From the NCBI GenBank assembly GCA_902801985.1, contig CADCKD010000013.1, forward strand, positions 1 to 46,878: a stretch of DNA of 46,878 nucleotides, read 5' to 3'. The notes below the pieces were generated by a model, which worked only from the letters and a program-made list of their open reading frames with translations, was not told the DNA's origin and searched no databases. This document shows positions 2,234 to 46,878 of this stretch, piece by piece. The stretch comes from an uncultured bacterium. GTDB taxonomy: Bacteria; Cyanobacteriota; Vampirovibrionia; Gastranaerophilales; Gastranaerophilaceae. The translations under genes were made by a program, and so were the position numbers. Each line of letters starts with the position of its first letter. The stretch's first letter is position 1.

Positions 2234-2998
2234 CTACATTTCAATAGATTGAAGTTGGATATTAGAATTTATATTCAAATCTGTTTTTCTTGAAAAGTGT
2301 CCTGATTTTGGTACAGGAGCTTTTTTAGTTGTGTTTGCAACGTATGGTGAAGCATCGTTGTTTTGTTGTAATTGTGGTGAATTAAGTTTTTGTTGTACGT
2401 TTGCAACTACTTTTGCAGCTTCTTCATCCTGAACTTTTGCTGTTACTACAAAATCCTTTTGTGGTAATTTTTGTTCAGTAGTTTTTTGCGTCGCAATATT
2501 TTCTTTTTCCTTTAAGCTCTTTTGGTATGCCAATACTGCCGGGTCTGTATGAGCTTTTAGGTAATGATAGTTTGTCATAATTTTGGTTACAAATCTTTTT
2601 GTTTCTGCAAACGGTGGAACTGCGTTATAACGTTTTACGTTTGCCGGTCCTGCATTGTATGCTGCTATTGCAAGCTGCATAGAACCAAACATTTTGTACA
2701 TAGACTTGTAATACATTATGCCGCCTTTGATATTATCATCAAGTGAGTAAGGGTTTAGCCCCATTCTTCTCGCTGTTGAAGGCATAAGTTGGAAAACTCC
2801 CACTGCTCCGTGTGAGCTTCTTGCTTCATGTCTGTAACCTGATTCTGCTTTTGCAATACTTAATGTTATTGCCGGATCAACACCCATTTCAATAGAATAC
2901 TTTACTATTGCAGCTTTTACGGTGTCTACACTTGCTGCTTGCACTTGTGAAAAGAACATTAGCACAAATGCCGTAGTTAATAGTAGTAATTTTTTCAA
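2234..2998 (-). CDS. Secreted lytic transglycosylase (SLT / Slt70-like domain)
   Basis: Cleaves peptidoglycan glycan strands outside the cytoplasmic membrane. The 254-residue protein has an N-terminal signal peptide (KK, hydrophobic core, cleavage near QVQA-AS at about residue 22). A compact SLT domain follows: AKAESGY with the catalytic Glu near 52, GAVGVFQLMPSTARRMG, the NIKGG motif and AIAAYNAGP. The C-terminal 90 residues are Gln/Lys-rich, low complexity and of unknown role. The start is a TTG supported by AGAGGA eight bases upstream; the ATG inside that spacer is in another frame and soon stops. A promoter is readable at 3099-3126, giving a leader of about 95 nt. A 19-codon frame in the leader (3054 to 2995) ends in TTGA overlap with this start. 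Confidence 0.92.
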   Translation of the reverse strand: MKKLLLLTTAFVLMFFSQVQAASVDTVKAAIVKYSIEMGVDPAITLSIAKAESGYRHEARSSHGAVGVFQLMPSTARRMGLNPYSLDDNIKGGIMYYKSMYKMFGSMQLAIAAYNAGPANVKRYNAVPPFAETKRFVTKIMTNYHYLKAHTDPAVLAYQKSLKEKENIATQKTTEQKLPQKDFVVTAKVQDEEAAKVVANVQQKLNSPQLQQNNDASPYVANTTKKAPVPKSGHFSRKTDLNINSNIQLQSIEM

Positions 2999-3248
2999 AA
3001 CATAAATCCTCTAGTTGTAAATTGGATATCCTCAAAAGTTACTCCTCTACACATTTTTTTATTGTAAATTTTCCCTCAATCGGATATTTTATGAAACCAT
3101 TATATTACAAAAAATTAAAATTTCAACCCTTACAAGATTGATTGTATACTTTAGGTATTTTGAAACTCTTGTCGTTACTGAGTTCTGGGGTTTATGAATT
3201 AGTGTAAAAAGTACATTAATTTTGTAAAGTCTAATGATTTTTTAATAA
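2999..3248 (-). other. Intergenic region with transglycosylase promoter and leader
   Basis: The 250-nt gap between ComEC and the transglycosylase contains the promoter at 3099-3126, a leader of about 95 nt with a possible 19-codon reading frame, and AT-rich sequence after the comEC stop without a convincing terminator hairpin. Confidence 0.5.
3099..3126 (-). promoter_or_regulatory. Sigma70-type promoter of the transglycosylase gene
   Basis: On the minus strand: TTGAAA (complement of 3121-3126), 16-nt spacer, then TATAAT (complement of 3099-3104). The predicted transcription start is near 3092. Confidence 0.6.
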
Positions 3249-5642
3249 TTATTTTGTTTTAAAAATTTCTTTCATTTTATATTTTCTATCGTGGGAATCG
3301 TAGGAATAAATTTTGTAGAATTCTCCATTTGTAGAAATTTTTATAGAATTTAGCATATCTGTTCGCAGAATTGTGGTTTTTCTGAGGGTATCAAGTGTTC
3401 CTTGGTTCGGGTGCCCGAAAGAGTTTATTCCGGTCGAAATTATAGAAATATCATTATTAAGGTGTTCTATCATTTTATTGTTTACAACCTGAGGTCCACC
3501 GTGGTGACCGACTTTTAGAATTTCAATGTTGGAAGGTATGTAATTTTTTATTTGTTCAAATGATGTAATTCCCGCATCTGCCATAAATAGCATTTCAAAA
3601 TCTTTATATTTAAGCAGTGTTATAGTGGAAGAATCGTTGCTTTCGTTTTTCCCTGAGATATTTGTTTTAAATGTTGTAATTGCCAAATCTTTTTCTTTAT
3701 AAATCTTGGAATTATTTTGGGTAATTATAATCGATTGATTTATTTCTTTTGCTGTATTGAAAATAGATTGAGCTGTTTCAGTGTTTGTTTGGGTTGTATT
3801 AAGATAAAGTTTTTTTACTTTTAAATTACTTATCAAATCGACTGTACCTCCGGAGTGGTCATTATCAAAATGCGTAACGATTATTCCTTCTATATTTTTT
3901 ATTCCTCTATCTTTTAAGTATTTAAGCATAATAATTTTAGCTTGAGTGTTACCACTTTTGTATGCATTTTTACCTGTATCGATAAAGAAATATTTATTCT
4001 GCGGAGTTTTAATTAAAAAGCAATCGGCGTTTCCAACATCAAAAGTTATAATTTCTAAATCTTTTGATGTTGTATGGACTGTTGTTAAAAGAAGAATAAA
4101 GGATGTTATCAATATTGTTTGGAGAGCTTTTTTGTATTTGTCATATTTAATAAGGTATGTCGCACCAATAATCATAGAATAATAAATGAGCATTTGTATG
4201 ATATTTGGATGTGTAGTTTGCAATACGCAGTGAGGCATATTAGAAAAGAAATTTGATATGTATACAAGTAAATTTAAAAAATAATTGAGGTAGAAATCAA
4301 ATGTCATACATATAAATTCTGAGATTGGTTTGATTATTGCAATGAGTGAACTTACAAACCCTGAGAAACTAATAACACTTAAAATGCTTGCAATCGAAAC
4401 ATTTGCAAAAATTGAATACAAACTGATAGTGTTAAAATAATACATTTGTATCGGGATTACCCATAATTGGGCAATAATAGGAATTATTACGGGTGCTTTT
4501 ATCCAGTTAGGGATATTTGGTAATTTTTGAATAATAACATTTGCAGTTGTTATTAAACCAAAGGTTACCATGAATGAAAGTTGAAAGCTGATATCGTTAA
4601 TGTATGCAGGGTTATATAAAAGCATGAGTACCGCTACGAGTGCAAGTAGTGATATGCTATGTGCATCTCTGTCAATGAGTTTACCGATTAATATAAATAT
4701 AAGCATTAAAGCTGCCCTTATTACTGAAGCTCCAAGGCCTGTCATAAAAGTATATACAATAATTGCCGCAATCCCTGATATGACCCGAACTTTGTATGGG
4801 AATTTAAAAAATTGCATTATATAGAACAAAAATGTATAGATGAACGCAACATTCATTCCTGATGCTGCGAGTATATGCAGAAGTCCCGAATTTATAAAAG
4901 AGTTTTTAATATCTTCCGGAGGAGTAACTGCGTCATTCCCGAATATAATTCCGCCTAGAATTTCTAAATTCGGGCTTTTTAAATAATGTGAATGAATTTC
5001 TAAAATGTCATTTCTTATATTATTCAGAGTTTGCAGGAATTTCCATTTAAAGTTCAGATTATTATCCAAACTTTTTGTTATTCCGTCGTTGTTATATAAA
5101 ACCGTAAAAATATTGTAGTTTTTGAGGTAAGAAGAATAGTCAAATTGTGAGGGGTTAGTTGAGTGAAACGGTTGTCTGAGGCTTCCGGTTATTTCTATTC
5201 TTTGTCCAATTTTCAAGGCCGCTGTTGTATCATTTTTAGGTATAGAAACAAAAGTTTTACCTCCGGCATTTTGGTTTTCTATTTGTTCTATTTCCATTAT
5301 GAATTTTAATTTTTCATTATCCGAAGATGTTGGTATACTTATAATCCTACCTGTGAAAATACTATTAATTGGTGCGAGAGGTAATAAATCATCCGAATTT
5401 TTTATTTTTAGCATTGTAATAAAAAATCCGAAATAAAAGATAAAAATTAAAACAAGAATTCTTTTTATGGTGAAAATATTGAAAATTATTGTAAGTATCA
5501 AAAATGCCGTTATTATAGATGCGCAAATAAGCGGATTTGGGCTAAAATATGCTAAGATTCCACACATAAAAATTAGGGATGTAAAAAACATTACAAAATT
5601 TTTATTTTGAATAATTTCTTGTATATTTTCTTTTTCAAACAT
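3249..5642 (-). CDS. comEC: ComEC/Rec2 family DNA-uptake channel
   Basis: Predicted inner-membrane channel that carries single-stranded DNA into the cytoplasm during natural transformation. The 797-residue length is typical. It has an N-terminal membrane segment pair with an OB-like DUF4131 region (about 20-190), the multi-helix Competence domain (about 225-510, starting at LLHILAASGMNVAF), and a C-terminal metallo-beta-lactamase domain with FDVGNADCFLI, THFDNDHSGG and ILKVGHHG. The start ATG at 5642 has no ribosome-binding site, but TAAAAT sits six bases upstream, suggesting a leaderless mRNA. It is divergent from pilT, whose product retracts type IV pili; the two could serve the same uptake process, though that is inference from proximity. 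No ComEA or ComF is in the window. Confidence 0.9.
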   Translation of the reverse strand: MFEKENIQEIIQNKNFVMFFTSLIFMCGILAYFSPNPLICASIITAFLILTIIFNIFTIKRILVLIFIFYFGFFITMLKIKNSDDLLPLAPINSIFTGRIISIPTSSDNEKLKFIMEIEQIENQNAGGKTFVSIPKNDTTAALKIGQRIEITGSLRQPFHSTNPSQFDYSSYLKNYNIFTVLYNNDGITKSLDNNLNFKWKFLQTLNNIRNDILEIHSHYLKSPNLEILGGIIFGNDAVTPPEDIKNSFINSGLLHILAASGMNVAFIYTFLFYIMQFFKFPYKVRVISGIAAIIVYTFMTGLGASVIRAALMLIFILIGKLIDRDAHSISLLALVAVLMLLYNPAYINDISFQLSFMVTFGLITTANVIIQKLPNIPNWIKAPVIIPIIAQLWVIPIQMYYFNTISLYSIFANVSIASILSVISFSGFVSSLIAIIKPISEFICMTFDFYLNYFLNLLVYISNFFSNMPHCVLQTTHPNIIQMLIYYSMIIGATYLIKYDKYKKALQTILITSFILLLTTVHTTSKDLEIITFDVGNADCFLIKTPQNKYFFIDTGKNAYKSGNTQAKIIMLKYLKDRGIKNIEGIIVTHFDNDHSGGTVDLISNLKVKKLYLNTTQTNTETAQSIFNTAKEINQSIIITQNNSKIYKEKDLAITTFKTNISGKNESNDSSTITLLKYKDFEMLFMADAGITSFEQIKNYIPSNIEILKVGHHGGPQVVNNKMIEHLNNDISIISTGINSFGHPNQGTLDTLRKTTILRTDMLNSIKISTNGEFYKIYSYDSHDRKYKMKEIFKTK

Positions 5643-7618: not shown

Positions 7619-8165
7619 ATTATATTATCGGAAGTTTTTGTGGTTAAATCTCAAAATCTTCCTTATGCCCCATTTCTTTGACCGCAAAGAAATGGGGCGC
7701 AAAGAAACTCCCCGACCTGCACTTCGCTTGCTAATAAATTGTAATTGCTCTGCCCCAAGCGGGCAAACTCACTTCGTTCAAACAATGCCCGCTTTGACCT
7801 TGCAGAACAAAACATTTATTGCTCGCTTCGTAAAGGTCGGAGGGGGTAAATGTACATCCAAATGGTTGCGTTTGTTCCCTATCATTGCGTGTGGGTGGGG
7901 GGGGATATAATTCCTCCTCGCCCCTTTGGGGAGAGGGTAGGGTGAGTGGCTATGCGAACCGTTATTTAGGTTCGCCCAAGATTTTTGCCTGTAAGGCAAA
8001 AACGTATTAACAAATTATACTGATATTTTGTGAACGGAACGATGCCGAAGGCAGCGTAGAAATCTGTGTGTTTTTCTTTTCGGTTCACTTTTCTTTTTAC
8101 GTCACAATTAAAAAGAAAAGTGAACTATTAGTGGAGAATTATAAAATCTTCCGATAGTATAATTT
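7617..8165 (+). repeat. 549-bp non-coding element with terminal inverted repeats (MITE-like)
   Basis: This gene-free stretch between recO and cca begins with AAATTATATTATCGGAAG (7617-7634) and ends with the inverted copy AAATTATACTATCGGAAG (read backwards from 8165), each followed by T-runs. Inside are strong hairpins: a perfect 14-bp stem GCCCCATTTCTTTG/complement with a 4-nt loop at 7667-7698, a 9-bp stem AAGCGGGCA at 7757-7765 with 7786-7794, inexact inverted arms around 7709-7718 and 7834-7845, and a perfect 16-bp stem starting GTTCACTTTTC at 8083-8098 with 8110-8125. It also contains a GC-rich block related to the repeats at 20378 and 36587. No transposase and no target duplication is visible. 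A 99-codon frame inside is not credible as a gene. Confidence 0.6.
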
Positions 8166-20445: not shown

Positions 20446-20541
20446 GTCATTGCGAGCGGAAGCGAAGCAATCCAGCTGTTTTGAATTCTTTTGTACTATC
20501 TAGATTGCCGCGTTGTCACTACCGTTCCTCCTCGCAATGAC
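20446..20541. repeat. Palindromic intergenic repeat, copy 1 (96 bp)
   Basis: Outer arms GTCATTGCGAG (20446-20456) and CTCGCAATGAC (20531-20541) are perfect inverted copies; inner arms GCAATC and GATTGC also pair. The middle ATCTAGATTGCCGCGTTGTCACTACC is shared with the two copies at 36269 and 36457. Confidence 0.85.
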
Positions 20542-36045: not shown

Positions 36046-36132
36046 GGAGAGATGTCCGAGTGGTTTAAGGTGACGATCTCGAAAGTCGTTGTAGGGGTGA
36101 CTCTACCATGGGTTCGAATCCCATTCTCTCCG
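36046..36132 (+). tRNA. tRNA-Ser (anticodon CGA)
   Basis: Acceptor GGAGAGA pairs with TCTCTCC. Anticodon stem ACGAT/GTCGT encloses loop CTCGAAA, giving CGA. The long variable arm (GTAGGGGTGACTCTAC) is typical for serine. T-loop GGTTCGAATCC is present. The discriminator is G at 36132 and CCA is not encoded. Confidence 0.95.
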
Positions 36133-36136
36133 AATA

Positions 36137-36168
36137 AAAAACTTCTTACTTTTGTAAGGAGTTTTTTA
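36137..36168 (+). terminator. Terminator of tRNA-Ser
   Basis: Hairpin AAACTtCTTAC / GTAAGgAGTTT (around loop TTTT) followed by a T-run, a few bases after the tRNA end. Confidence 0.7.
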
Positions 36169-36268
36169 TATTGCGGTATTTGGTTATTCCCCAAGAACCA
36201 CAAGGCTTATGCCTTGTCTGGTTCGAGCGTGAGTAAATGTTGTTTATATTTTGCGCATCTGTTCCCAT

Positions 36269-36364
36269 GTCATTGCGAGCGACAGCGAAGCAATCCAGCC
36301 GTTTTGAGTTCTTTTGAACTATCTAGATTGCCACGTCGTCACTACCGTTCCTCCTCGCAATGAC
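36269..36364. repeat. Palindromic intergenic repeat, copy 2 (96 bp)
   Basis: Arms GTCATTGCGAG (36269-36279) and CTCGCAATGAC (36354-36364). The middle is nearly identical to copy 1 (GAAGCAATCCAGC, CTATCTAGATTGCC, GTCACTACCGTTCCTC). Confidence 0.85.
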
Positions 36365-36456: not shown

Positions 36457-36551
36457 GTCATTGCGAGCGCAGCGAAGCAATCCAGCTATTTTGAATTTTA
36501 TTGTGCTATCTAGATTGCCACGTCGTCACTACCGTTCCTCCTCGCAATGAC
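36457..36551. repeat. Palindromic intergenic repeat, copy 3 (95 bp)
   Basis: Arms GTCATTGCGAG (36457-36467) and CTCGCAATGAC (36541-36551), with the same interior as copies 1 and 2. It lies in tandem with copy 2, about 92 bp further on. Confidence 0.85.
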
Positions 36552-36732: not shown

Positions 36733-36761
36733 TTGATATTTATTTTTTTTTATGCTAGAAT
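36733..36761 (+). promoter_or_regulatory. Promoter of the giant surface protein gene
   Basis: TTGATA (36733-36738), 17-nt spacer, TAGAAT (36756-36761) with an upstream TG at the extended -10 position. The leader would be about 34 nt. Confidence 0.6.
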
Positions 36762-36801: not shown

Positions 36802-39800
36802 ATGAATAACAAAAAATCGATGTTAAAATGCATTTTAGCATCCGCTGTTGCGGTTAGCAGTTTAGGAACACTAGCTTCTGCGCAAGATATGTCTGCGCCT
36901 TGTATTAATGAAGATGTGAGCAAAAAATTAAGCTCACCGTTTGAACAAACCCCGTTTTTAGTAAAAGCTAAGAGTATAGCAAAAGGCACTCGTGTAGTTT
37001 TGGCAAAGAAAAAATCAACCCCGACAGGTGCTGCTGCAAATATTCCTGATAATCTTACATCAAAAACAAGCAGAACAAACCAAACTACCGGTTCCTTAAG
37101 TTCCGATAGAACAAACTATAACAATATAAAGTATTCTTCTTCATGGTCATTATTAAGTCCTGCTCCCACGTTAGGTGGTGCGATTCATTCTGAAGTTAAT
37201 ACTACAATAACAAATTCAATTTTTAGAAATAATGAGGCTGAAGGCAGATATATAATTAGAAGCAATCCATCTTATGGTGGTGGAATGTATATAGAGGGTA
37301 ATCGTATAACTGCGACTATTGATAATGTTTTATTTGATTCTAATACAGCATCAAGTGGTTCTGGAGGTGCAATATATTCAGCAGGTGGAGATAGCAATGA
37401 TAACGTCCTTACTTTTAACATTACAAATGCAACATTTACAAATAACTCTGCAACAGAATTAAATAATAATCATGGTGATGGTGGGGCTATTTATTCTAAT
37501 GGTTATACAAGTCTTACTATAACCGATACCGATTTTACTTCAAACTCTGCTGAGGGTGACGGTGGCGCTATATACAACAATGCAAATAATGTAATGTCTA
37601 TTGTAGCATCCGGTTCTGATGTCAATTTCTCCGGCAACAGTGCATCTGGTAATGGTGGCGCTATATATAACGCTTCAGGTAAAACAATCAATTTCTCAAC
37701 AAGTAATGACAAGACTATAAACTTTTTAACTTCATCCGACAATGATATATACAATGTCGGAACAATAACTATTAACGGTGATGTTAAAGTAGAAACAAAT
37801 ATTTCCGGTAACGGAACATTAAATTTAAATTCCGGTACATTTTATGCTAAACAGCTTTCTCAAGGTAGACTTAACTTAAATGGCGGCACTCTTAGCTTCC
37901 AAGAATCAGATGCAAAAACTCAAAATCTGCCTGTGGCTTATTCTTCAAGTTCTGTTACAACTTTAAGCGGTTCAGGGAATTTAAAAATTGATGTAAATAT
38001 GGCAAATGGCTCATCTGATACGCTATCTGTTAATAGTGCCAACGCCGGTACTACGCTGAATTTGTCATCAATTAATGTTGGTGCAGATTACGCAGGTTCA
38101 TACGATTCTTTAGTCGACTATATCTCATATGTTACAGGCAGAGGTAGAAATAATATCACATACACAATAAATGGCTCCAGCACAGGTCAGCTTGTTACAC
38201 AATCTTCTACTGGTGTGAGTTATACTTTTACTCTTGGTTCAAACGGTAAATTAACTGTAGGGGATATTCACGAAACTGATGAAGGTTTGAAAGAGTTTAT
38301 TCGCGGTACATTGACTACAAATACGGATAATTTCTCATTCACAGATGATTTACAGCTTGATTATGACGAAGCGGTCGGAACGACTGATAACTCTACATAT
38401 ACCACTTTGAATATGGAGATGAACGGTCATAACTTGACCGGTGAAGAACTTGACGGTATTACTGTTGCTGATGGCTATACTTTGAACGTAAACGGTCAAG
38501 CCGGCACTCCGTCTGTTATTTCCAATTTCGCAAAAGCGTTTGTAAACGAAGGGATATTGAATGTTGCAAATATTACGTTTAACGATGATAACGTTGCAAT
38601 AGATAACTCAAATGAGTTGAATTTGTCAGGCAATAATACATTCCAATCTGCTGTCAGCGGCAGCGGCTCAACTTCTATTGACGATGGTGTAACTACTATT
38701 GGTTCCGGTGTTAATTTTACGCAGGGTGAAATTACCGTTCAAGACGGTGCACAACTTTTAAATTCAGGGAATGTTACTGTTAGTGATAAATTTGATAATT
38801 TTGGCACGGTTCAAGGTGGTACAATTACTCTAGACAGTGCTGAATTTAATCTGAAAAATGGCGGAAGTTTATCAACATCTGCCTTTACAACAACAGGTTC
38901 AACATCAAGTACCCTCAATGCACTAAATAATGCTATAGATAATATTGTTCTTGGTAATACGACACTCAGCGCAAATTTGAATACAAAAATTGATATCAAC
39001 CAAGATACAGGTACATTTGATACTATTTCGATTAATGCTCCGTCTTCAGGCACATCCGGAAACATTTATATTAATAATATAAATTTCTTAGGTTCTTCTG
39101 AGTTGACAAAAGACAGTAAGTTTAAAATTTTGACAGGTGCGAATGGAACGGTTCAACTAGAGTCGGCATCCTCTCTTGCGGATGATATTGTGGAAGTAAC
39201 GACTGCCGAATGGGATGATGATATCATCGCAAATATCAAATGGGATAAAGAATTTAATCATAACGAACAAGAATATACCGATACTTATAAATTCGGTGCG
39301 GTAAAATCTGCCGGCTCCGAATATAATGACAGTTTGGGATATAGTTTAGATTCCCATGAAGGCGGAGAAATAACTTCAACAAGTCTTGGTGATACATTAA
39401 AAATCTTAAATCAATTTGAAACAAATACAGACAGAAGTTTCACCGCTAACAGTGCGAGTGATATATATAATGTCGGAGAAAATTTAGGGGCAACTGCCTC
39501 CGGGAAATTAGTAATTAACGGGCTTCCTGGGGGTGCAACTTCCGGTCAATCAACAATAAACGGACAAGGTCACAGTTTATTTGAACTAACAAATGCAAAT
39601 ACTCAGGTAGAAATTAATAATACACAAATTCTTAATGCCGTACATGTTGCAACTGTGGGCGCAGACAATGCCCTTACTCTTAACAATGTAATAATAAGCG
39701 GTTCAACAGATAAAGCAATTACTTCCTCCGGTGCAATGAGTGTGCACGACTCCGCATTTATAAACAATACATCTGCAGATGACGGCGGTGCAATATATCT

Positions 39801-42800
39801 TTCTAAAATCCCTGGTACAACAGAATTTAAAAATGTTCTGTTCCAAGGAAATACCATTGAAACAAATACGGCAAATAACAACGGTTTCTGTGGCGGCGTA
39901 ATATATATAAATGCTGCCGAAGCAACAGGCACAAATCCGACAGATAGTGTTTACAGTTTTGACAATGTTACTTTTGACAGCAACGGTATAACCAATAGCC
40001 AATCTACTGGTCGTGGCGGTGCTATATATATAATGGAACCTACCACTGATAAAAACAACGTTGTTGAAATAAAAAACAGTTCTTTTGTTAATAATTACCT
40101 TAATATTAAAGCTAACGGGAAGTTTGCATCCGGTGGTGCTATATACAACAATGGTAAAATATCCAAGATATCAGGAACAACATTTGAAGGTAATTATGCA
40201 TCGGCGTATAGTAATATTTCATACGGCGGTGCCTTATGTAATAACAAAGATGCAGTAATATCATCGATTGAAGATACCGTATTTACCGGTAATCGTGCGG
40301 GTGGAAATGAAGGTCGTGGCGGTGCAGTACAAAATAGCGGTTCGATTACATTCAACGGTACAAACACATTTACGAATAACACGGCGAATGCTAGCTCTAA
40401 GGGATTTGGCGGTGCTATATACAACGATAGTGCGATTGTATTTAATGGTACAACAACATTTACGGGTAACTCGGTTACAGCTAACAGTGGAGACGGCGGA
40501 GCAATATACAATGGTTTCGCTGATAGTAATAATAATAAAAATGTTATACTTACATTTAACGGTACAGCTACATTTAGTGAAAACAAAGTTAACGGTGTTC
40601 TCAATGATATCTACAATAAAGGTGTAATAAATTTTGGTGCGAATTCAACGACAACATTGAATGGCGGTGCCAACGGCGATAACGGTACAATGAATATGGC
40701 CTCCGGTGCTGTTCTTAATCTTGGCGGAGTTATATCGGACAACACAATAAAAATGTCCGGCGGTACAATCAACTTGGGTACTTATACACCGGTTGGAAGT
40801 TCTGATGTGAATTACGGTAATCTGAATCTTATAGGTTTAACTACAACATCAGGAACAAATATAATAAATGCAATAAACGATTCAATACAAAATATTGGGC
40901 TTGGAACAGCTACGCTTACAGCCGGATTAAATGCAAATCTTGATATAACTTCAACTGGAATTGATCATTTTACGGTAACAGACGGTTCGACAGGTACAAT
41001 AAGTGTGACATTGTCTGATGTTACTGCACCTGTTTTGAATACTGTATATCAGGTAATTTACGGAGATGACAGTAACCAAGTTTCTATATCTTTAGCGAGC
41101 GCTGTTGCTGATTATGTTTATAGCTGGACAGATTATGATCTTGAGGATTCTGTTTATGCTGTTCATAATTGGGGTGATGTAAGAGGTATTTATAATCAGG
41201 ATGAAGCTGATACATACCATTTTGAAGTAGTCGATAATAATCACAGTTTGGCTTATGTCATAGATGAGTCAATGCATTATGTTGGAGATAAAGAATATAC
41301 AACATATTATGACCTTTTGCATAGAATAAATACTCCCGAAACTGATTCGGATAGAGAATTTAATGCATCTTCAGCTACAGAAACCTATACGGTTGGGGCA
41401 AATATTGACCCTCAAAAAGGTGAAAGTATTACAGGTTTGGGTACGACATCACGTGGTAAGTTGACGATTAATGGGGTTGCTGAAGGTAATAGCAAATCAA
41501 CAATAGACGGCAACGGTAAAACTCTTTTTGAACTAACTCTGGCTAAAGACGGTGATACAAATACTCAAGTTATTATTAACAATACAAAAATTATTAATGC
41601 CGCAAAAGTTGCAACTGTTTCTGCGGATAATGAATTAACTCTTAATAATGTCGAAATTAGCGGAAATACTTCCGGTATTACGAATAACGGAGATTTAATC
41701 TTTACAGGTAATAATACTATTGCAAATGTGATTGACGGAAATAACGGTGCTGCAAGTGTTAATAGCGGTATTACGACATTATCTGCTGACTTGACGCAGG
41801 GTACTCTTGATGTTTTGGATTCTGCGCAGATAGTAAATAATGCTAATATTCGTGCAACTGTTACAAATGCAGGTACTATTACCAATAACTCTGCAATTTA
41901 TACATTAAATGGCTCAAATAGCGGAACTATTTCTGGCGGAAGACTCAATATATCAGGTACTTTTGATAACTCAGGTGTGTTGTCAAATTCTGTTGTGAAT
42001 GTTGAAAATTCTTCTCAATTGAATTACGCTACTAATTCGGCAAATGCTTCATTTAGCAGCACTTTAGTCGGTTCAAATACTGCTAAATTTAACAAATCAG
42101 GTTCAACTGAACTTCAAATAAGCGGTAATCAATCAGGCTTTGAGGGGACTGTAAATATTAATGAAGGTGCTCTTACTTATTTAGAATCTTCTGATAACAG
42201 ATTCTTTGATAGCTCCGCTATTATCAACGTTGATAATACTGCTAATGCAGATTCAACTCTAAAATATACATCTATTAGTGGTAAAACATTGACAAATGGT
42301 GTTTTACCTGCCATAAATCTGAAAAATGGTGCAACCTTTGAATATAATGCGGGTACAGGCGAAACTGTTATAGGTAACGGTTTCTACAATTCGGTTTCCG
42401 GTAGTAATAATTTAATATTCAACGGTGGAAATTCCGATAGAGTTGTCCTAAATTCTGATTTTAATTCAAACGATACTGCAACATTCAAAGGTGCAAATCT
42501 CGTTCTTGGTTCCGGTTTGAGTACAATTGCAAGTTCTATAATTCTTGATAATACTTCGCTAAATCTCATGAATTCAAGTGTTGCGGATTATACAATAAAT
42601 GGTTTGTCATCATTAAATAATTCTAAAGTTAATGTGGATGTTTCTTTGGGCGCTGTTTCGGCAGGTGACAGATTACTGGTTGAAAATGGCAGCGGCGTAT
42701 TAAATATTTCTCAATTTAGAATTGTAGATGATAACGGTTTATTTACGACTGATGATAGTTCAAAAACTGTTCAAATCATTAAAAATGGTTCTAACAGCTC

Positions 42801-45800
42801 TTTGAGTTTGGGTTCTGCAGGGGCAACTATTGATGGCGCTTGGTCTACCAATGTATATGAATATCAAATTTCATCTGCAAAAACCGATACAGATAATGAT
42901 TCATTGAAATTCACCGGAGTTGATGTTTCTGATGCAAATTCTTTGAAGAAGATGAATAATTATGACAATTCAACAGAACAGAATATCAGAGGTTTTTCTG
43001 TTGTTAGAGGTGCTTCACCTTATCATATCGGAGAAGATTTGGGCAAAACTGAACACGGAACTTTTGTAGTAAACGGTGTTTCAAAGGATGAAAGCGTAAT
43101 TTCAGGTGTTCGTGCAGAAGGTGATTGGACTTCTGCCGGTGAAAAAGGTTCTATGTTTGAACTTACCGAAACTGAAAAAACTACTGATTTCAATTTGAGC
43201 AATGTTACTGTTGAAGATGCTCAAGTTTCTTCAAGAGGCGGTGCAGTTGTTTATTCAACGAGTGACAAGGCTGATATAACTATTTCGGATGTAATTATTC
43301 AAAATAACACTTCAAGCGGCAGAGGCGGAGCTTTTGATATTGAAAATGCTCATAGTGTAAGTATTTCAAATTCAGAATTCAAGGGTAATGCATCAGATGG
43401 TTTGGGTGGCGCAATATACAGTGCTGTTGATTTATCAGTTTCAAATACTGATTTTTCTAATAATACTGCTCAAAATTCCGCAAATGATATTTATCTTGCT
43501 AATGGTGCTGATTTGTTATATACAACAGGCGCACAGGCAAATACTATCTCAGGCGGTATCTCAAGTGAAATTTCGCAAAGTGTATTTACCAAACTCGGTT
43601 CTTCTGATTTGAATATCAGTGGTTCAAATTCAGGGTATAAAGGTAGTGTTAATATCAATGAAGGGAATCTGAACTTTGTTGCTACATCTGCGCAAGATAG
43701 TTTATTTGATACTTCTGATTCTTCAATAAATATTGCACAAAACTCTAAATTCAATATTGATGATAAAGGACTTACAAATCTTGCAACTTCAAATCTAAAC
43801 GGCAAAGGTACGATAGATAAAAATGGTGCAGGAGTACTTAATGTTACAGGCGATAATGATAATTTCATAGGTGTTGTAAATATTAAATCCGGCGAAATTT
43901 CTTATAAAGAACAGGGTGAAGGTGCTTCATTCTTCGACGCAAGTGCGATTAATATGTCTGCTAATACCGTTTTGAGTGTTGAAACAACAAGCCAAAATAA
44001 TATTCAAGGCGGAAATATTTCTTCATCGGGTTCAGGTACTGTATTTAATAAATCAGGCAGCGGTAGTTTTGATTTAACCGGAAAAAATACGGTAGGTTCT
44101 GTTAATGTTCAACAAGGCATTTTAAATGTTGCTGATAATGCTGCCGGTACAAGAACATATAATGCAGGTGCTACTTCTATTTCCGAAAATGCGACATTAA
44201 ATTATACCGTTGATAAAAATTCTGAACTAACTAATTTGTCAGGTAATGGTAATCTGGTAAAACAGGGCGGTTCAAAATTAGAGTTATCTGATTATACATT
44301 TAGTGGTTTAGCTCAGGTGCAAAACGGTATTTTGGATGTTACAAGCTCAAGTGAAAATGCTACTGATCTAGATTTCAATGTTGAAGTATATGGTAATTCT
44401 GAATTTGATTATAATGCCGGTACAAATGCACAGTTAACATTAAATAATAAGGGTAAGTTTGCTTTTGATACTGATGCTTCAGGAGCCAAGGCCGTATTTA
44501 ACAATGCAAAAATAAATTTAGGCGAAATTGCTAATGTTGCGGGTAATACGGTTGTTATTAATAATAGCTCTGAGATTGCTTTAACTGCTTCAAATTATTT
44601 AGGTTCTTATGAGTTTACGAACTCTGTATTAGATGTTATGGATTCAGATGTATCTTTGACTGATGCATTAAAAACATACACATTTAATAATTTAACAGTA
44701 AATAATTCTGATTTAACTATTGATGTTTCATTAGGTAATAACAGCGGCAGTGATGTTTTAAATATTGTTGACGGCAGTGGCAATTTGCGCTTGACAAAAC
44801 TTGCAATAACAGAAGATAACGGTATTTTTGATAATGAAGAAAAAACAAAAACATTCCAAATTATAAACAATACAAATGGTTCTGTTGGTATTTCTTTATT
44901 GGCTGGAGATCCGAAACTTGCAGATTGGTCAACAACTATTTATGAATATGAGATAAATGCAGTAAAATCTGATGATCAAAATGATTATTATGATTCTGTT
45001 GAATTCAAGGGTATAAGAATTGCTTCTCCTGATACTTTGAGAATAATGAACCACGAACGTAATGGTTCAAGAGGTTTTAGTGTTGTTGGTTCAAATATTT
45101 ATCATATAGCAAGAGATTTGGATGAAACTCTTGAAGGTGATTTTGTTGTTATTGGTAACGGCAAGGACGTTAGTACAATTTCTGGTAACAGAGTTAGTTA
45201 TACAAGAAAAGATGATGGTACTATAGATATTTCTGCGCCTATCGAGGGAGAGTATGGTTCATTCTTTGAATTAACAAAAAATAATACAAAATTAACAGTT
45301 CAAGATTTAACAATACAAGAAGCACAAAGAAAAGATCAGGCAATTAAAGACGGTTCTGTTTTATATCTAAATAATGGTAAGTCAGAAGCAGTGCTTAATA
45401 ATGTTGTGTTTAAAGACAGCTCAGCTGCTAATGGCGGTGCTATCGCAAATATTAATAGTAAGTCTTTAGCTATTACAAATTCAGACTTTACAGGTAATAG
45501 TGCAAGTGCAAACGGCGGTGTTATTTATAATACATCAACAGGTACAAGCCTGACAAATATTACTGCAGATGGTAATAAAGCTGATGGCAAAGGTGGTGCA
45601 ATCTACACTAATGCTGATATGCTTATTACAAATTCTGCTTTTGGAGCAAATTCAATCAACCAGCACAAAAATGGGAATGATGAATACGCTGCTAATGATA
45701 TTTACATTGATGGCGAAAATGCTAAAGTTACATTCAACGCAACAGGTAATTCAAGTTTAATCAACAGTGGTATTGCCGGAAATGGTACTTTAGAAAAAAC

Positions 45801-46878
45801 AGGTGACGGAGTTCTAAATCTTCACGGTAATAACGCAGATTTCGGCGGAGTATTAAAAGTTTCAAACGGTGAAGTTTTATTCTCTCAAAATTCTGCAAAT
45901 GATACTTATATAACCGGTACAACAAATGTTGCTAATGGTGCAAAAGTAACATTAGACAACGATGCTGCGGACATATCAGGCGGTAAATTCGCAGGTAATG
46001 GTGAAATAAGTCAGACAGGTTCAAAAAATATTATCTTGACTGAAGATAATTCAGGTTTCCACGGCAGTGCAAATATTACCGGCGGTAATTTAGTTGTAAA
46101 TGATAATAGCTTCTTTGCATCAGATTCTAATACAACTATTTCTAATGTTATAGAGTTTAATACTTCTTCCGGTAAAGAAATATCTATAAATAACGATGGC
46201 GACTTGATTTCAGGTTCGGGTTCGTTAAGAAAATCTGGAGCAGGAAAATTAATTTTATCAGGTAATAATTCAGCATTAACAGGCGGAACACTTATTCAAG
46301 CTGGCACATTAGAATACGATGCCTCAGGCAATAATACTGATTCAATGGTTGGCGGCGGAATAAATGTAAACGGTAATACGTTCATTGTAAAAAATACTGC
46401 AAACTCAATATTTGATTTAAATAATGATATAAGCGGCAACGGTACATTTAACGTTAAGGGAAAAGTTTCTATCTCCGGTGATGATTCGCAATATACCGGA
46501 ACAACAAATATCCTTTCTGATTCAGTTTTATCTTTTGAAAAAACAGATGATAATTCATTTGTCGGCGGCTTGGTAAATGCTGTTGGTAATTTGGAATATA
46601 CAACAAGTAAGACAAATCAAGATGTTATTCAAAATGTTATCGGTTCAGGTAATGTTTCAAAATTAGGTTCAGGTAATCTTGTAATTAATAATACTGTTAA
46701 CGGTAATGACAGATTTACAGGTCTATTTGATGCAATAAATGGGACTTTGACTATCAATGCTCAAGCTCAAGCTCAAGAAGGTGTATTTGATTATAGTGCA
46801 GTAGTTTCAAACGGTTCTGTTCTGAACTATAATTCTTCAGCAAATGACAATTATAGTATAAATGGTAATTCAAAATTC
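36802..46878 (+). CDS. Giant modular surface protein (Pmp-like / autotransporter passenger), 3' truncated
   Basis: Open for 3,359 codons and cut by the window end. A signal peptide (1-30, ending LASA-QD) is followed by a basic linker. Two repeat classes fill the rest. Pmp-like motifs: FxxN together with GGA[IVL]Y, for example FTSNSAEGDGGAIYNN, FTNNTANASSKGFGGAIYND and FTGNSASANGGVIYNT; about 15-18 sites at 37363-37668, 39784-40512, 43231-43422 and 45433-45606. Autotransporter-associated beta-strand repeats from about 42100 on: GTLEKTGDGVLNLHGNN, GSLRKSGAGKLILSGNN, NLVKQGGSKLELS. A longer header module recurs (see findings). A beta-helix passenger on the cell surface is likely; no beta-barrel translocator is in the window, so type V secretion is inferred. 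There are almost no Cys. A weak GAGAG precedes the ATG; M7 is an alternative start. Confidence 0.85.
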   Translation, partial: MNNKKSMLKCILASAVAVSSLGTLASAQDMSAPCINEDVSKKLSSPFEQTPFLVKAKSIAKGTRVVLAKKKSTPTGAAANIPDNLTSKTSRTNQTTGSLSSDRTNYNNIKYSSSWSLLSPAPTLGGAIHSEVNTTITNSIFRNNEAEGRYIIRSNPSYGGGMYIEGNRITATIDNVLFDSNTASSGSGGAIYSAGGDSNDNVLTFNITNATFTNNSATELNNNHGDGGAIYSNGYTSLTITDTDFTSNSAEGDGGAIYNNANNVMSIVASGSDVNFSGNSASGNGGAIYNASGKTINFSTSNDKTINFLTSSDNDIYNVGTITINGDVKVETNISGNGTLNLNSGTFYAKQLSQGRLNLNGGTLSFQESDAKTQNLPVAYSSSSVTTLSGSGNLKIDVNMANGSSDTLSVNSANAGTTLNLSSINVGADYAGSYDSLVDYISYVTGRGRNNITYTINGSSTGQLVTQSSTGVSYTFTLGSNGKLTVGDIHETDEGLKEFIRGTLTTNTDNFSFTDDLQLDYDEAVGTTDNSTYTTLNMEMNGHNLTGEELDGITVADGYTLNVNGQAGTPSVISNFAKAFVNEGILNVANITFNDDNVAIDNSNELNLSGNNTFQSAVSGSGSTSIDDGVTTIGSGVNFTQGEITVQDGAQLLNSGNVTVSDKFDNFGTVQGGTITLDSAEFNLKNGGSLSTSAFTTTGSTSSTLNALNNAIDNIVLGNTTLSANLNTKIDINQDTGTFDTISINAPSSGTSGNIYINNINFLGSSELTKDSKFKILTGANGTVQLESASSLADDIVEVTTAEWDDDIIANIKWDKEFNHNEQEYTDTYKFGAVKSAGSEYNDSLGYSLDSHEGGEITSTSLGDTLKILNQFETNTDRSFTANSASDIYNVGENLGATASGKLVINGLPGGATSGQSTINGQGHSLFELTNANTQVEINNTQILNAVHVATVGADNALTLNNVIISGSTDKAITSSGAMSVHDSAFINNTSADDGGAIYLSKIPGTTEFKNVLFQGNTIETNTANNNGFCGGVIYINAAEATGTNPTDSVYSFDNVTFDSNGITNSQSTGRGGAIYIMEPTTDKNNVVEIKNSSFVNNYLNIKANGKFASGGAIYNNGKISKISGTTFEGNYASAYSNISYGGALCNNKDAVISSIEDTVFTGNRAGGNEGRGGAVQNSGSITFNGTNTFTNNTANASSKGFGGAIYNDSAIVFNGTTTFTGNSVTANSGDGGAIYNGFADSNNNKNVILTFNGTATFSENKVNGVLNDIYNKGVINFGANSTTTLNGGANGDNGTMNMASGAVLNLGGVISDNTIKMSGGTINLGTYTPVGSSDVNYGNLNLIGLTTTSGTNIINAINDSIQNIGLGTATLTAGLNANLDITSTGIDHFTVTDGSTGTISVTLSDVTAPVLNTVYQVIYGDDSNQVSISLASAVADYVYSWTDYDLEDSVYAVHNWGDVRGIYNQDEADTYHFEVVDNNHSLAYVIDESMHYVGDKEYTTYYDLLHRINTPETDSDREFNASSATETYTVGANIDPQKGESITGLGTTSRGKLTINGVAEGNSKSTIDGNGKTLFELTLAKDGDTNTQVIINNTKIINAAKVATVSADNELTLNNVEISGNTSGITNNGDLIFTGNNTIANVIDGNNGAASVNSGITTLSADLTQGTLDVLDSAQIVNNANIRATVTNAGTITNNSAIYTLNGSNSGTISGGRLNISGTFDNSGVLSNSVVNVENSSQLNYATNSANASFSSTLVGSNTAKFNKSGSTELQISGNQSGFEGTVNINEGALTYLESSDNRFFDSSAIINVDNTANADSTLKYTSISGKTLTNGVLPAINLKNGATFEYNAGTGETVIGNGFYNSVSGSNNLIFNGGNSDRVVLNSDFNSNDTATFKGANLVLGSGLSTIASSIILDNTSLNLMNSSVADYTINGLSSLNNSKVNVDVSLGAVSAGDRLLVENGSGVLNISQFRIVDDNGLFTTDDSSKTVQIIKNGSNSSLSLGSAGATIDGAWSTNVYEYQISSAKTDTDNDSLKFTGVDVSDANSLKKMNNYDNSTEQNIRGFSVVRGASPYHIGEDLGKTEHGTFVVNGVSKDESVISGVRAEGDWTSAGEKGSMFELTETEKTTDFNLSNVTVEDAQVSSRGGAVVYSTSDKADITISDVIIQNNTSSGRGGAFDIENAHSVSISNSEFKGNASDGLGGAIYSAVDLSVSNTDFSNNTAQNSANDIYLANGADLLYTTGAQANTISGGISSEISQSVFTKLGSSDLNISGSNSGYKGSVNINEGNLNFVATSAQDSLFDTSDSSINIAQNSKFNIDDKGLTNLATSNLNGKGTIDKNGAGVLNVTGDNDNFIGVVNIKSGEISYKEQGEGASFFDASAINMSANTVLSVETTSQNNIQGGNISSSGSGTVFNKSGSGSFDLTGKNTVGSVNVQQGILNVADNAAGTRTYNAGATSISENATLNYTVDKNSELTNLSGNGNLVKQGGSKLELSDYTFSGLAQVQNGILDVTSSSENATDLDFNVEVYGNSEFDYNAGTNAQLTLNNKGKFAFDTDASGAKAVFNNAKINLGEIANVAGNTVVINNSSEIALTASNYLGSYEFTNSVLDVMDSDVSLTDALKTYTFNNLTVNNSDLTIDVSLGNNSGSDVLNIVDGSGNLRLTKLAITEDNGIFDNEEKTKTFQIINNTNGSVGISLLAGDPKLADWSTTIYEYEINAVKSDDQNDYYDSVEFKGIRIASPDTLRIMNHERNGSRGFSVVGSNIYHIARDLDETLEGDFVVIGNGKDVSTISGNRVSYTRKDDGTIDISAPIEGEYGSFFELTKNNTKLTVQDLTIQEAQRKDQAIKDGSVLYLNNGKSEAVLNNVVFKDSSAANGGAIANINSKSLAITNSDFTGNSASANGGVIYNTSTGTSLTNITADGNKADGKGGAIYTNADMLITNSAFGANSINQHKNGNDEYAANDIYIDGENAKVTFNATGNSSLINSGIAGNGTLEKTGDGVLNLHGNNADFGGVLKVSNGEVLFSQNSANDTYITGTTNVANGAKVTLDNDAADISGGKFAGNGEISQTGSKNIILTEDNSGFHGSANITGGNLVVNDNSFFASDSNTTISNVIEFNTSSGKEISINNDGDLISGSGSLRKSGAGKLILSGNNSALTGGTLIQAGTLEYDASGNNTDSMVGGGINVNGNTFIVKNTANSIFDLNNDISGNGTFNVKGKVSISGDDSQYTGTTNILSDSVLSFEKTDDNSFVGGLVNAVGNLEYTTSKTNQDVIQNVIGSGNVSKLGSGNLVINNTVNGNDRFTGLFDAINGTLTINAQAQAQEGVFDYSAVVSNGSVLNYNSSANDNYSINGNSKF
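39403..45370 (+). repeat. Header modules repeated within the giant protein
   Basis: Four related segments of about 105-125 residues begin near 39403, 41296, 42940 and 45034. Shared order: a short helix ending in L-x-x-x-N or M-N, a D/S-R-x-F or R-G-F-S-V element, Y-x-[IV]-[GA]-x-[DN]-[LI], G-x-[FL]-V/T-[IV]-[NI]-G, S-T/V-I-x-G, [SG]-x-[LF]-F-E-L-T, then a strand [LI]-x-[NIQ]-x-T-I. The two later copies are closer to each other (RGFSVV, YHI, GSMFELT/GSFFELT). A fifth, more distant copy may lie near 38260-38620. Confidence 0.6.

What the first reader, a model, noticed from the sequence alone, without database searches (positions are those of the whole stretch)
36802..46878. Giant Pmp-like plus autotransporter-repeat surface protein, over 3,350 residues
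Seen: one open frame to the window end with a signal peptide, repeated FxxN and GGA[IVL]Y motifs, and many repeats of the form G-x-[LI]-x-K-x-G-x-G-x-L-x-[LI]-x-G-x-N. Known: GGA[ILV]/FxxN pairs define chlamydial polymorphic outer membrane proteins, and the second repeat is the autotransporter-associated beta strand. Inference: a very large adhesin or phase-varied surface antigen in a non-chlamydial, probably gut-dwelling lineage, built by mixing two passenger types in one chain.
Basis: partly seen in the sequence, partly recalled or inferred. Interest (0 to 1): 0.8.

Follow-up and report, generated by a model that had tools for sequence, protein, structure and literature searches.

The report
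Giant Pmp-like autotransporter of gut cyanobacteria
This is one huge surface protein (about 5,250 residues once its missing end is found on a second contig) of a gut-dwelling, non-photosynthetic relative of cyanobacteria, built like known self-secreting adhesins and part of a large, mostly overlooked family in that group, some of whose members carry what look like on/off DNA switches.

Summary
The window is a whole contig (C13) that ends inside the gene. Its last 33 bases are the first 33 bases of contig C7, in frame and nowhere else in the genome, and C7 supplies 1,895 further residues and the stop. The joined protein has 5,254 residues: signal peptide, at least seven tandem passenger modules (five begin in the window) and a C-terminal 12-stranded barrel.
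A passenger module is predicted as one continuous right-handed beta-helix running from the Pmp-type block into the PATR block. A relative's barrel matches solved type Va autotransporter translocators (NalP, EspP, AIDA-I).
The organism belongs to the Gastranaerophilales (non-photosynthetic gut Cyanobacteria). The barrel family occurs in 148 of 192 sampled genomes of the order, often in many copies, and hardly outside it.
Mixing Pmp and PATR repeats is not new (E. coli YfaL has both), nor is giant size by module duplication (BigE, 10,429 aa). New, as far as I could search, are the lineage, the paralogue expansion, and poly-G tracts just before the signal-peptide core of 8 of 53 paralogues: a phase-variation layout. 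This gene itself has only a T9 tract in a putative promoter spacer, which proves nothing. Adhesin function is inferred.

The parts
36270..36363 (.). Palindromic intergenic repeat (about 94 bp, ends TCATTGCGAG / CTCGCAATGA), copy 1 upstream of the gene
   Evidence: Pattern search: 8 places in the genome, three in the window; folds as a hairpin, z -3.62
36458..36550 (.). Second copy of the same palindromic repeat
   Evidence: z -1.87
36733..36761 (+). Promoter-like site TTGATA-17-TAGAAT with extended TG; its spacer holds a T9 tract (36743-36751)
   Evidence: Consensus scan, 10 of 12 matches; the number of sites found is at the chance level; tract length
36802..36882 (+). Sec-type signal peptide, residues 1-27, predicted cleavage ASA|QD
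   Evidence: Read from the translation; no signal-peptide program was available
36802..46878 (+). 5' part (3,359 codons) of the giant autotransporter gene; continues on contig C7:34-5721 to 5,254 residues
36883..39240 (+). Passenger module 1 (residues 28-813) with the first Pmp-type GGAI/FxxN block (residues 125-314)
39241..41124 (+). Passenger module 2 (residues 814-1441), Pmp block at residues 995-1268
   Evidence: Self-similarity to module 3 (32-57% in tiles), anchor at residue 878
41125..42840 (+). Passenger module 3 (residues 1442-2013)
   Evidence: anchor at residue 1518
42841..44925 (+). Passenger module 4 (residues 2014-2708): Pmp block, NDIY boundary, then PATR block
   Evidence: anchor 2063, NDIY 2228; up to 51% identity to the module on C7
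44926..46878 (+). Passenger module 5 (residue 2709 to the window end; ends on C7)
   Evidence: anchor 2757, NDIY 2965; PATR best stretch 3142-3171
44899..46341 (+). Fragment folded: continuous right-handed beta-helix through Pmp block and PATR block
   Evidence: AlphaFold2 mean pLDDT 94.3, pTM 0.91; pertactin Z 19.1 over model residues 10-475
46846..46878 (+). 33-base overlap with the start of contig C7, which carries the last 1,895 residues, including the 12-stranded barrel

Best explanation
The gene encodes a giant monomeric (type Va) autotransporter of a Gastranaerophilales bacterium. Inferred route: the signal peptide sends the chain through Sec; an Omp85 (BamA-like) protein inserts the C-terminal 12-stranded barrel, with a helix through its pore, into the outer membrane; the passenger crosses and stacks outside into a very long right-handed beta-helix built from at least seven tandem modules, each with a Pmp-type (GGAI/FxxN) block, followed in the later modules by a PATR block. 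It most likely stays on the surface and acts as an adhesin for gut mucus, food particles, other microbes or host cells. The gene grew by duplication of whole modules. It belongs to a lineage-specific family in which many paralogues are kept, and in part of which poly-G tracts probably set the reading frame of the signal peptide (phase variation). Shown: reading frame, overlap with C7, repeats, module structure, predicted folds, family distribution, selection on the barrel, tract placement. Inferred: secretion, surface anchoring, adhesion, switching.
For: Open frame and repeats. Join to C7, supported by an internal paralogous alignment that crosses the join (tile 3301-3500 against 2500-2688, E 3e-7) and by unbroken relatives whose matches span it (for example L052, query 2404-3897). 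Barrel of the relative L047 (82% identical over 312 residues): pLDDT mostly above 90, 12 strands and a helix; NalP Z 30.5 / 1.9 A over 268 residues, EspP 29.1, AIDA-I 28.9; Foldseek top hits are EspP, AIDA-I, BrkA and Hbp. NCBIfam autotrans_barl hits 31 of 43 relatives; PF03797 passes its cut-off in 28 of 117 genomes of the order, several of these loci being members of the same barrel family. Passenger beta-helix. Barrel under purifying selection against L047 (pS 0.658, pN 0.104). Two Omp85 proteins in the genome. Family in 148 of 192 genomes of the order. Diderm envelope with lipid A genes reported for the lineage (PMC4040986).
Against: The own barrel itself misses PF03797 and autotrans_barl; membership rests on relatives and on a model of a relative, since the own barrel lies outside the window. 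The join was not sequenced through: it is a 33-base overlap between two draft contigs, and a second barrel 3' end at the edge of contig C15 shows that this assembly breaks inside such genes. No TamB was found with Pfam. Nothing was measured on expression, secretion or binding.
Confidence: 0.82

Rival explanations
1. Same architecture, but the passenger is not an adhesin: it is an enzyme scaffold or polysaccharide-binding/degrading beta-helix, as in alginate epimerases, lyases and tailspikes.
For: The highest Z matches of the passenger model are the alginate epimerase AlgE6 and a tailspike (Z 21.0 and 20.8), and the rumen/gut habitat of relatives is rich in polysaccharide.
Against: The repeats are N/G/S/T-rich beta-helix coils; no enzyme family passes its cut-off in Pfam or NCBIfam. 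Pertactin is within two Z units (19.1) and aligns over more of the model. A shared beta-helix does not show activity.
Confidence: 0.12
2. It is an antigenic decoy: a phase-varied surface coat whose value lies in variation rather than in binding.
For: Large paralogue sets; poly-G switch layout in 8 of 53 paralogues, about 0.07 expected from the density of such tracts elsewhere; variable module number between relatives (L047 lacks the stretch between 2548 and 3680); T9 in a promoter-like spacer here.
Against: No poly-G tract in this gene; promoter-like sites are at chance level; T tracts of 7 or more are common in this AT-rich window (24); relatives' upstream regions do not share a spacer tract. 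Tract length variation within a population was not seen.
Confidence: 0.25
3. The C13-C7 join is wrong: the window's gene ends elsewhere, and C7 carries the tail of another paralogue.
For: Draft assembly with 74 contigs; another barrel end is cut at the edge of C15.
Against: Exact 33-base overlap, unique in the genome and in frame; the internal paralogous segment aligns through the join; relatives of 4,800-6,200 codons exist unbroken.
Confidence: 0.06

Closest known systems
E. coli YfaL/EhaC (AIDA-I-type putative autotransporter adhesin)
   Same: One chain with Chlam_PMP repeats, PATR repeats and a C-terminal autotransporter barrel; NCBIfam gives a weak partial match of the C7 part to the YfaL model, far under its cut-off.
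   Different: 1,250 aa against 5,254; a typical AC_1 autochaperone and a PF03797 barrel, which the window gene's barrel does not reach; Proteobacteria.
Chlamydial polymorphic membrane proteins (Pmp)
   Same: Many GGA[ILV] and FxxN tetrapeptides, paralogous family, autotransporter layout; Pmps act as adhesins through these motifs (PMC2997323), and homopolymer phase variation has been hypothesised for Pmps (PMC4514472).
   Different: Different phylum; PATR blocks between Pmp blocks; no ChlamPMP_M domain listed; far longer.
BigE (largest autotransporter in PMC3419190, 10,429 aa)
   Same: A giant autotransporter made by replication (eight-fold) of a passenger unit.
   Different: Grouped with BrkA and related to beta-proteobacterial proteins; that survey reports autotransporters from Proteobacteria, Fusobacteria and Chlamydiales, and the word Cyanobacteria does not occur in it.
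NalP, EspP and AIDA-I translocator domains
   Same: 12-stranded barrel with a helix in the pore; Z 28.6-30.5.
   Different: Only 9-14% sequence identity; most relatives here carry a lysine-rich tail of about 15-200 residues beyond the last strand.

Membership tests
Type Va (classical) autotransporter | N-terminal Sec signal peptide | tested here: met
   n-, h- and c-regions read from residues 1-27; not scored by a program
Type Va (classical) autotransporter | C-terminal 12-stranded single-chain barrel with pore helix | tested here: met
   Model of the relative L047 (82% identical barrel): 12 strands and a helix; NalP/EspP/AIDA-I Z 28.6-30.5
Type Va (classical) autotransporter | Sequence match to PF03797 or TIGR01414 over cut-off | tested here: inconclusive
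   Own barrel: none. Relatives: PF03797 over cut-off in 28 of 117 genomes of the order, TIGR01414 in 31 of 43 at E up to 0.1
Type Va (classical) autotransporter | Beta-helical passenger N-terminal to the barrel in the same chain | tested here: met
   the single chain depends on the 33-base join
Type Va (classical) autotransporter | BamA-dependent export of the passenger | not testable with these tools
   Two Omp85 genes present; export itself needs an experiment
Chlamydial Pmp family | Multiple GGA[ILV] and FxxN repeats; Chlam_PMP over cut-off | tested here: met
Chlamydial Pmp family | Pmp middle domain (ChlamPMP_M, PF07548) | tested here: not met
   Not listed for either half of the protein
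Chlamydial Pmp family | Encoded in Chlamydiae | tested here: not met
   Closest relatives are Gastranaerophilales/Melainabacteria MAGs
PATR-bearing autotransporters | PATR (PF12951) over cut-off in the passenger | tested here: met
   32.6 bits in the window part, 79.9 bits in the C7 part
Phase-variable contingency gene | Hypervariable tract placed to switch frame or promoter, with length variation observed | tested here: inconclusive
   This gene: only T9 in a putative spacer. Paralogues: poly-G layout; no population data

The most novel reading that the evidence does not exclude
Gastranaerophilales keep a large, phase-variable repertoire of Pmp-like autotransporters as their main surface-variation system, reached independently of Chlamydiae, with single members over 5,000-6,000 residues; the window gene is one of them and is itself tuned by the T9 tract between its -35 and -10 boxes.
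Probability: 0.3. Interest if true: 0.6.

Novelty: new variant of a known kind. Interest (0 to 1): 0.42.

Why it matters
Classical autotransporters are known mainly from Proteobacteria, Fusobacteria and Chlamydiae. Here a large family of them, with Pmp-like passengers, sits in the non-photosynthetic gut Cyanobacteria, whose contact with host and neighbours is little known; the papers I could search do not mention it. Because the own barrel escapes the usual Pfam model, a PF03797-based survey would not count this genome at all. The poly-G switch layout in paralogues offers a direct test of phase variation in a mostly uncultured gut lineage.

Tried and rejected
Chance explanation of the motifs: rejected by shuffles. 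Stop or frameshift artefact: none found; the open end is a contig end. Mixing of two repeat types as the novelty: rejected, E. coli YfaL has both. Record size: rejected, BigE is larger (PMC3419190), and G120 has a relative with a 6,185-codon frame. Entirely new barrel: rejected, relatives hit PF03797 and the fold is classical. Conserved promoter tract: relatives' 5' ends show no shared poly-T spacer. Operon partners: neighbours on either side (DAHP synthase, flavodoxin, glycosyltransferase, MscL) are not consistently next to the relatives. Plasmid origin: no plasmid match to the barrel. Passenger dN/dS against L047 came out meaningless because my slice was out of frame; only the barrel value is used. 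A direct pairwise alignment of the join region to two relatives printed nothing; the join evidence rests. Literature on Gastranaerophilales with autotransporter or phase variation: no paper in the library held.

Full report
What was claimed and what is there. All of it is there. The frame has 3,359 codons without a stop. Pfam puts Chlam_PMP (10 stretches) and PATR (5 stretches) over their curated cut-offs; NCBIfam does the same with its own two repeat models. GGA[ILV] occurs 23 times in the joined protein against 1.0 in shuffles, and FxxN 42 times against 24.4.

The missing end. The window is the whole of contig C13 of a 2.135 Mb, 74-contig, 99.9% complete genome. Its last 33 bases equal the first 33 bases of contig C7, on the same strand, and match nowhere else in the genome. 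C7 continues in the same frame for 1,906 residues (11 of them in the overlap) to a stop at C7:5721. The joined protein has 5,254 residues. The join is an inference from overlap. It is supported by an internal paralogous segment that aligns through it and by unbroken relatives with frames of 4,800-6,200 codons. A second barrel 3' end, cut at the edge of contig C15, shows that at least one paralogue exists in this genome and that the assembly breaks inside such genes.

Anatomy. After the signal peptide come at least seven modules. Six of them carry a recognisable anchor (residues 878, 1518, 2063, 2757, 3540, 4269; spacing 545-783 aa), and modules share up to 51-57% identity in tiles. In most modules a Pmp-type block ends at a conserved NDIY; in the later modules a PATR block follows. 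A fragment spanning both block types (window 44899-46341) was predicted with mean pLDDT 94.3 as one continuous parallel beta-helix. Its best matches in the PDB are right-handed beta-helix proteins, with pertactin aligned over model residues 10-475 (Z 19.1). The Pmp and PATR blocks are therefore two styles of coil in the same predicted helix, not two separate domains.

Barrel. The C7 end carries about 275 residues of barrel preceded by a helix. The model of the relative L047 (82% identical barrel; 43 sequences in the alignment) has 12 strands, and most of the barrel is above pLDDT 90. It superposes on NalP, EspP and AIDA-I with Z 28.6-30.5. The own sequence does not reach the Pfam or NCBIfam barrel models, but relatives in the same family do, so it is a diverged member of the known superfamily. 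Against L047 the barrel shows pS 0.658 and pN 0.104, which indicates purifying selection on a working protein. Most relatives have a lysine-rich tail after the last strand, often with a KKVIK-like motif; its role is unknown.

Who has it. Named relatives are Gastranaerophilales/Melainabacteria MAGs, several of them from ruminant guts. The barrel family is in 148 of 192 genomes of the order. A wider profile search hit 159 of 289 in the class, one listed hit being outside the order, and 142 of 386 in the phylum, none listed outside the order. The lineage is diderm with lipid A genes (PMC4040986), and this genome has two Omp85 proteins.

Switches. In 8 of 53 distinct paralogues with a readable 5' end, a G tract of 8 or more lies within 150 bases upstream of the signal-peptide core; about 0.07 are expected from the density of such tracts elsewhere in the same loci (Poisson p about 1e-14, not corrected for relatedness). 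The tract sits between a leader ATG and the signal peptide, and in most deposited copies the leader and the signal peptide are out of register. A giant relative of about 4,160 codons in G167 has a G12 tract at the same place. The window gene has no such tract. [quoted passage not shown]

What is known already. Chlamydial Pmps are adhesins through FxxN/GGA motifs (PMC2997323). E. coli YfaL combines Chlam_PMP, PATR and a barrel. BigE is larger and also built by replication (PMC3419190). So the kind is known; the lineage, the module layout and the family-wide expansion with switches are, as far as the held library shows, not described.

Verdict. A real, intact-looking giant type Va autotransporter, most likely an adhesin, and a new variant of a known kind. 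The more interesting result is the family around it.

Noticed in passing
L102 6838, L103 6916, L104 6526, L109 81, L112 8046, L113 7829, L114 422, L122 7768, L142 2192, L154 3618: Poly-G tracts (G9-G17) between a leader ATG and the signal-peptide core of paralogous autotransporter genes, mostly out of register: a layout for phase variation.
   Followed up: partly
window 36270-36363, 36458-36550, 20447-20540: Palindromic intergenic repeat of about 93 bp, 8 exact-ended copies in the genome, two of them directly upstream of this gene; a MITE- or REP-like element. ORF 36052-36363 overlaps it and is probably not a gene.
   Followed up: partly
L047-L125, 3' ends of barrel genes: Most relatives carry a lysine-rich tail of about 15-200 residues after the final barrel strand, often with a KKVIK-like motif; a few end right at the strand.
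   Followed up: partly
L130 8000-8247 (edge of contig C15 of the same genome): 3' end of a second barrel gene cut off by the contig edge, so this genome has at least one more paralogue.
   Followed up: partly
L008 5761-6138 (contig C7): Small predicted secreted protein (125 aa) directly downstream of the autotransporter; no relative among the fetched loci.
   Followed up: no
window 7897-7904: G8 tract, the only G or C run of 7 or more in the window, in a stretch without a Pfam match between recO-like and polyA-polymerase-like genes.
   Followed up: no
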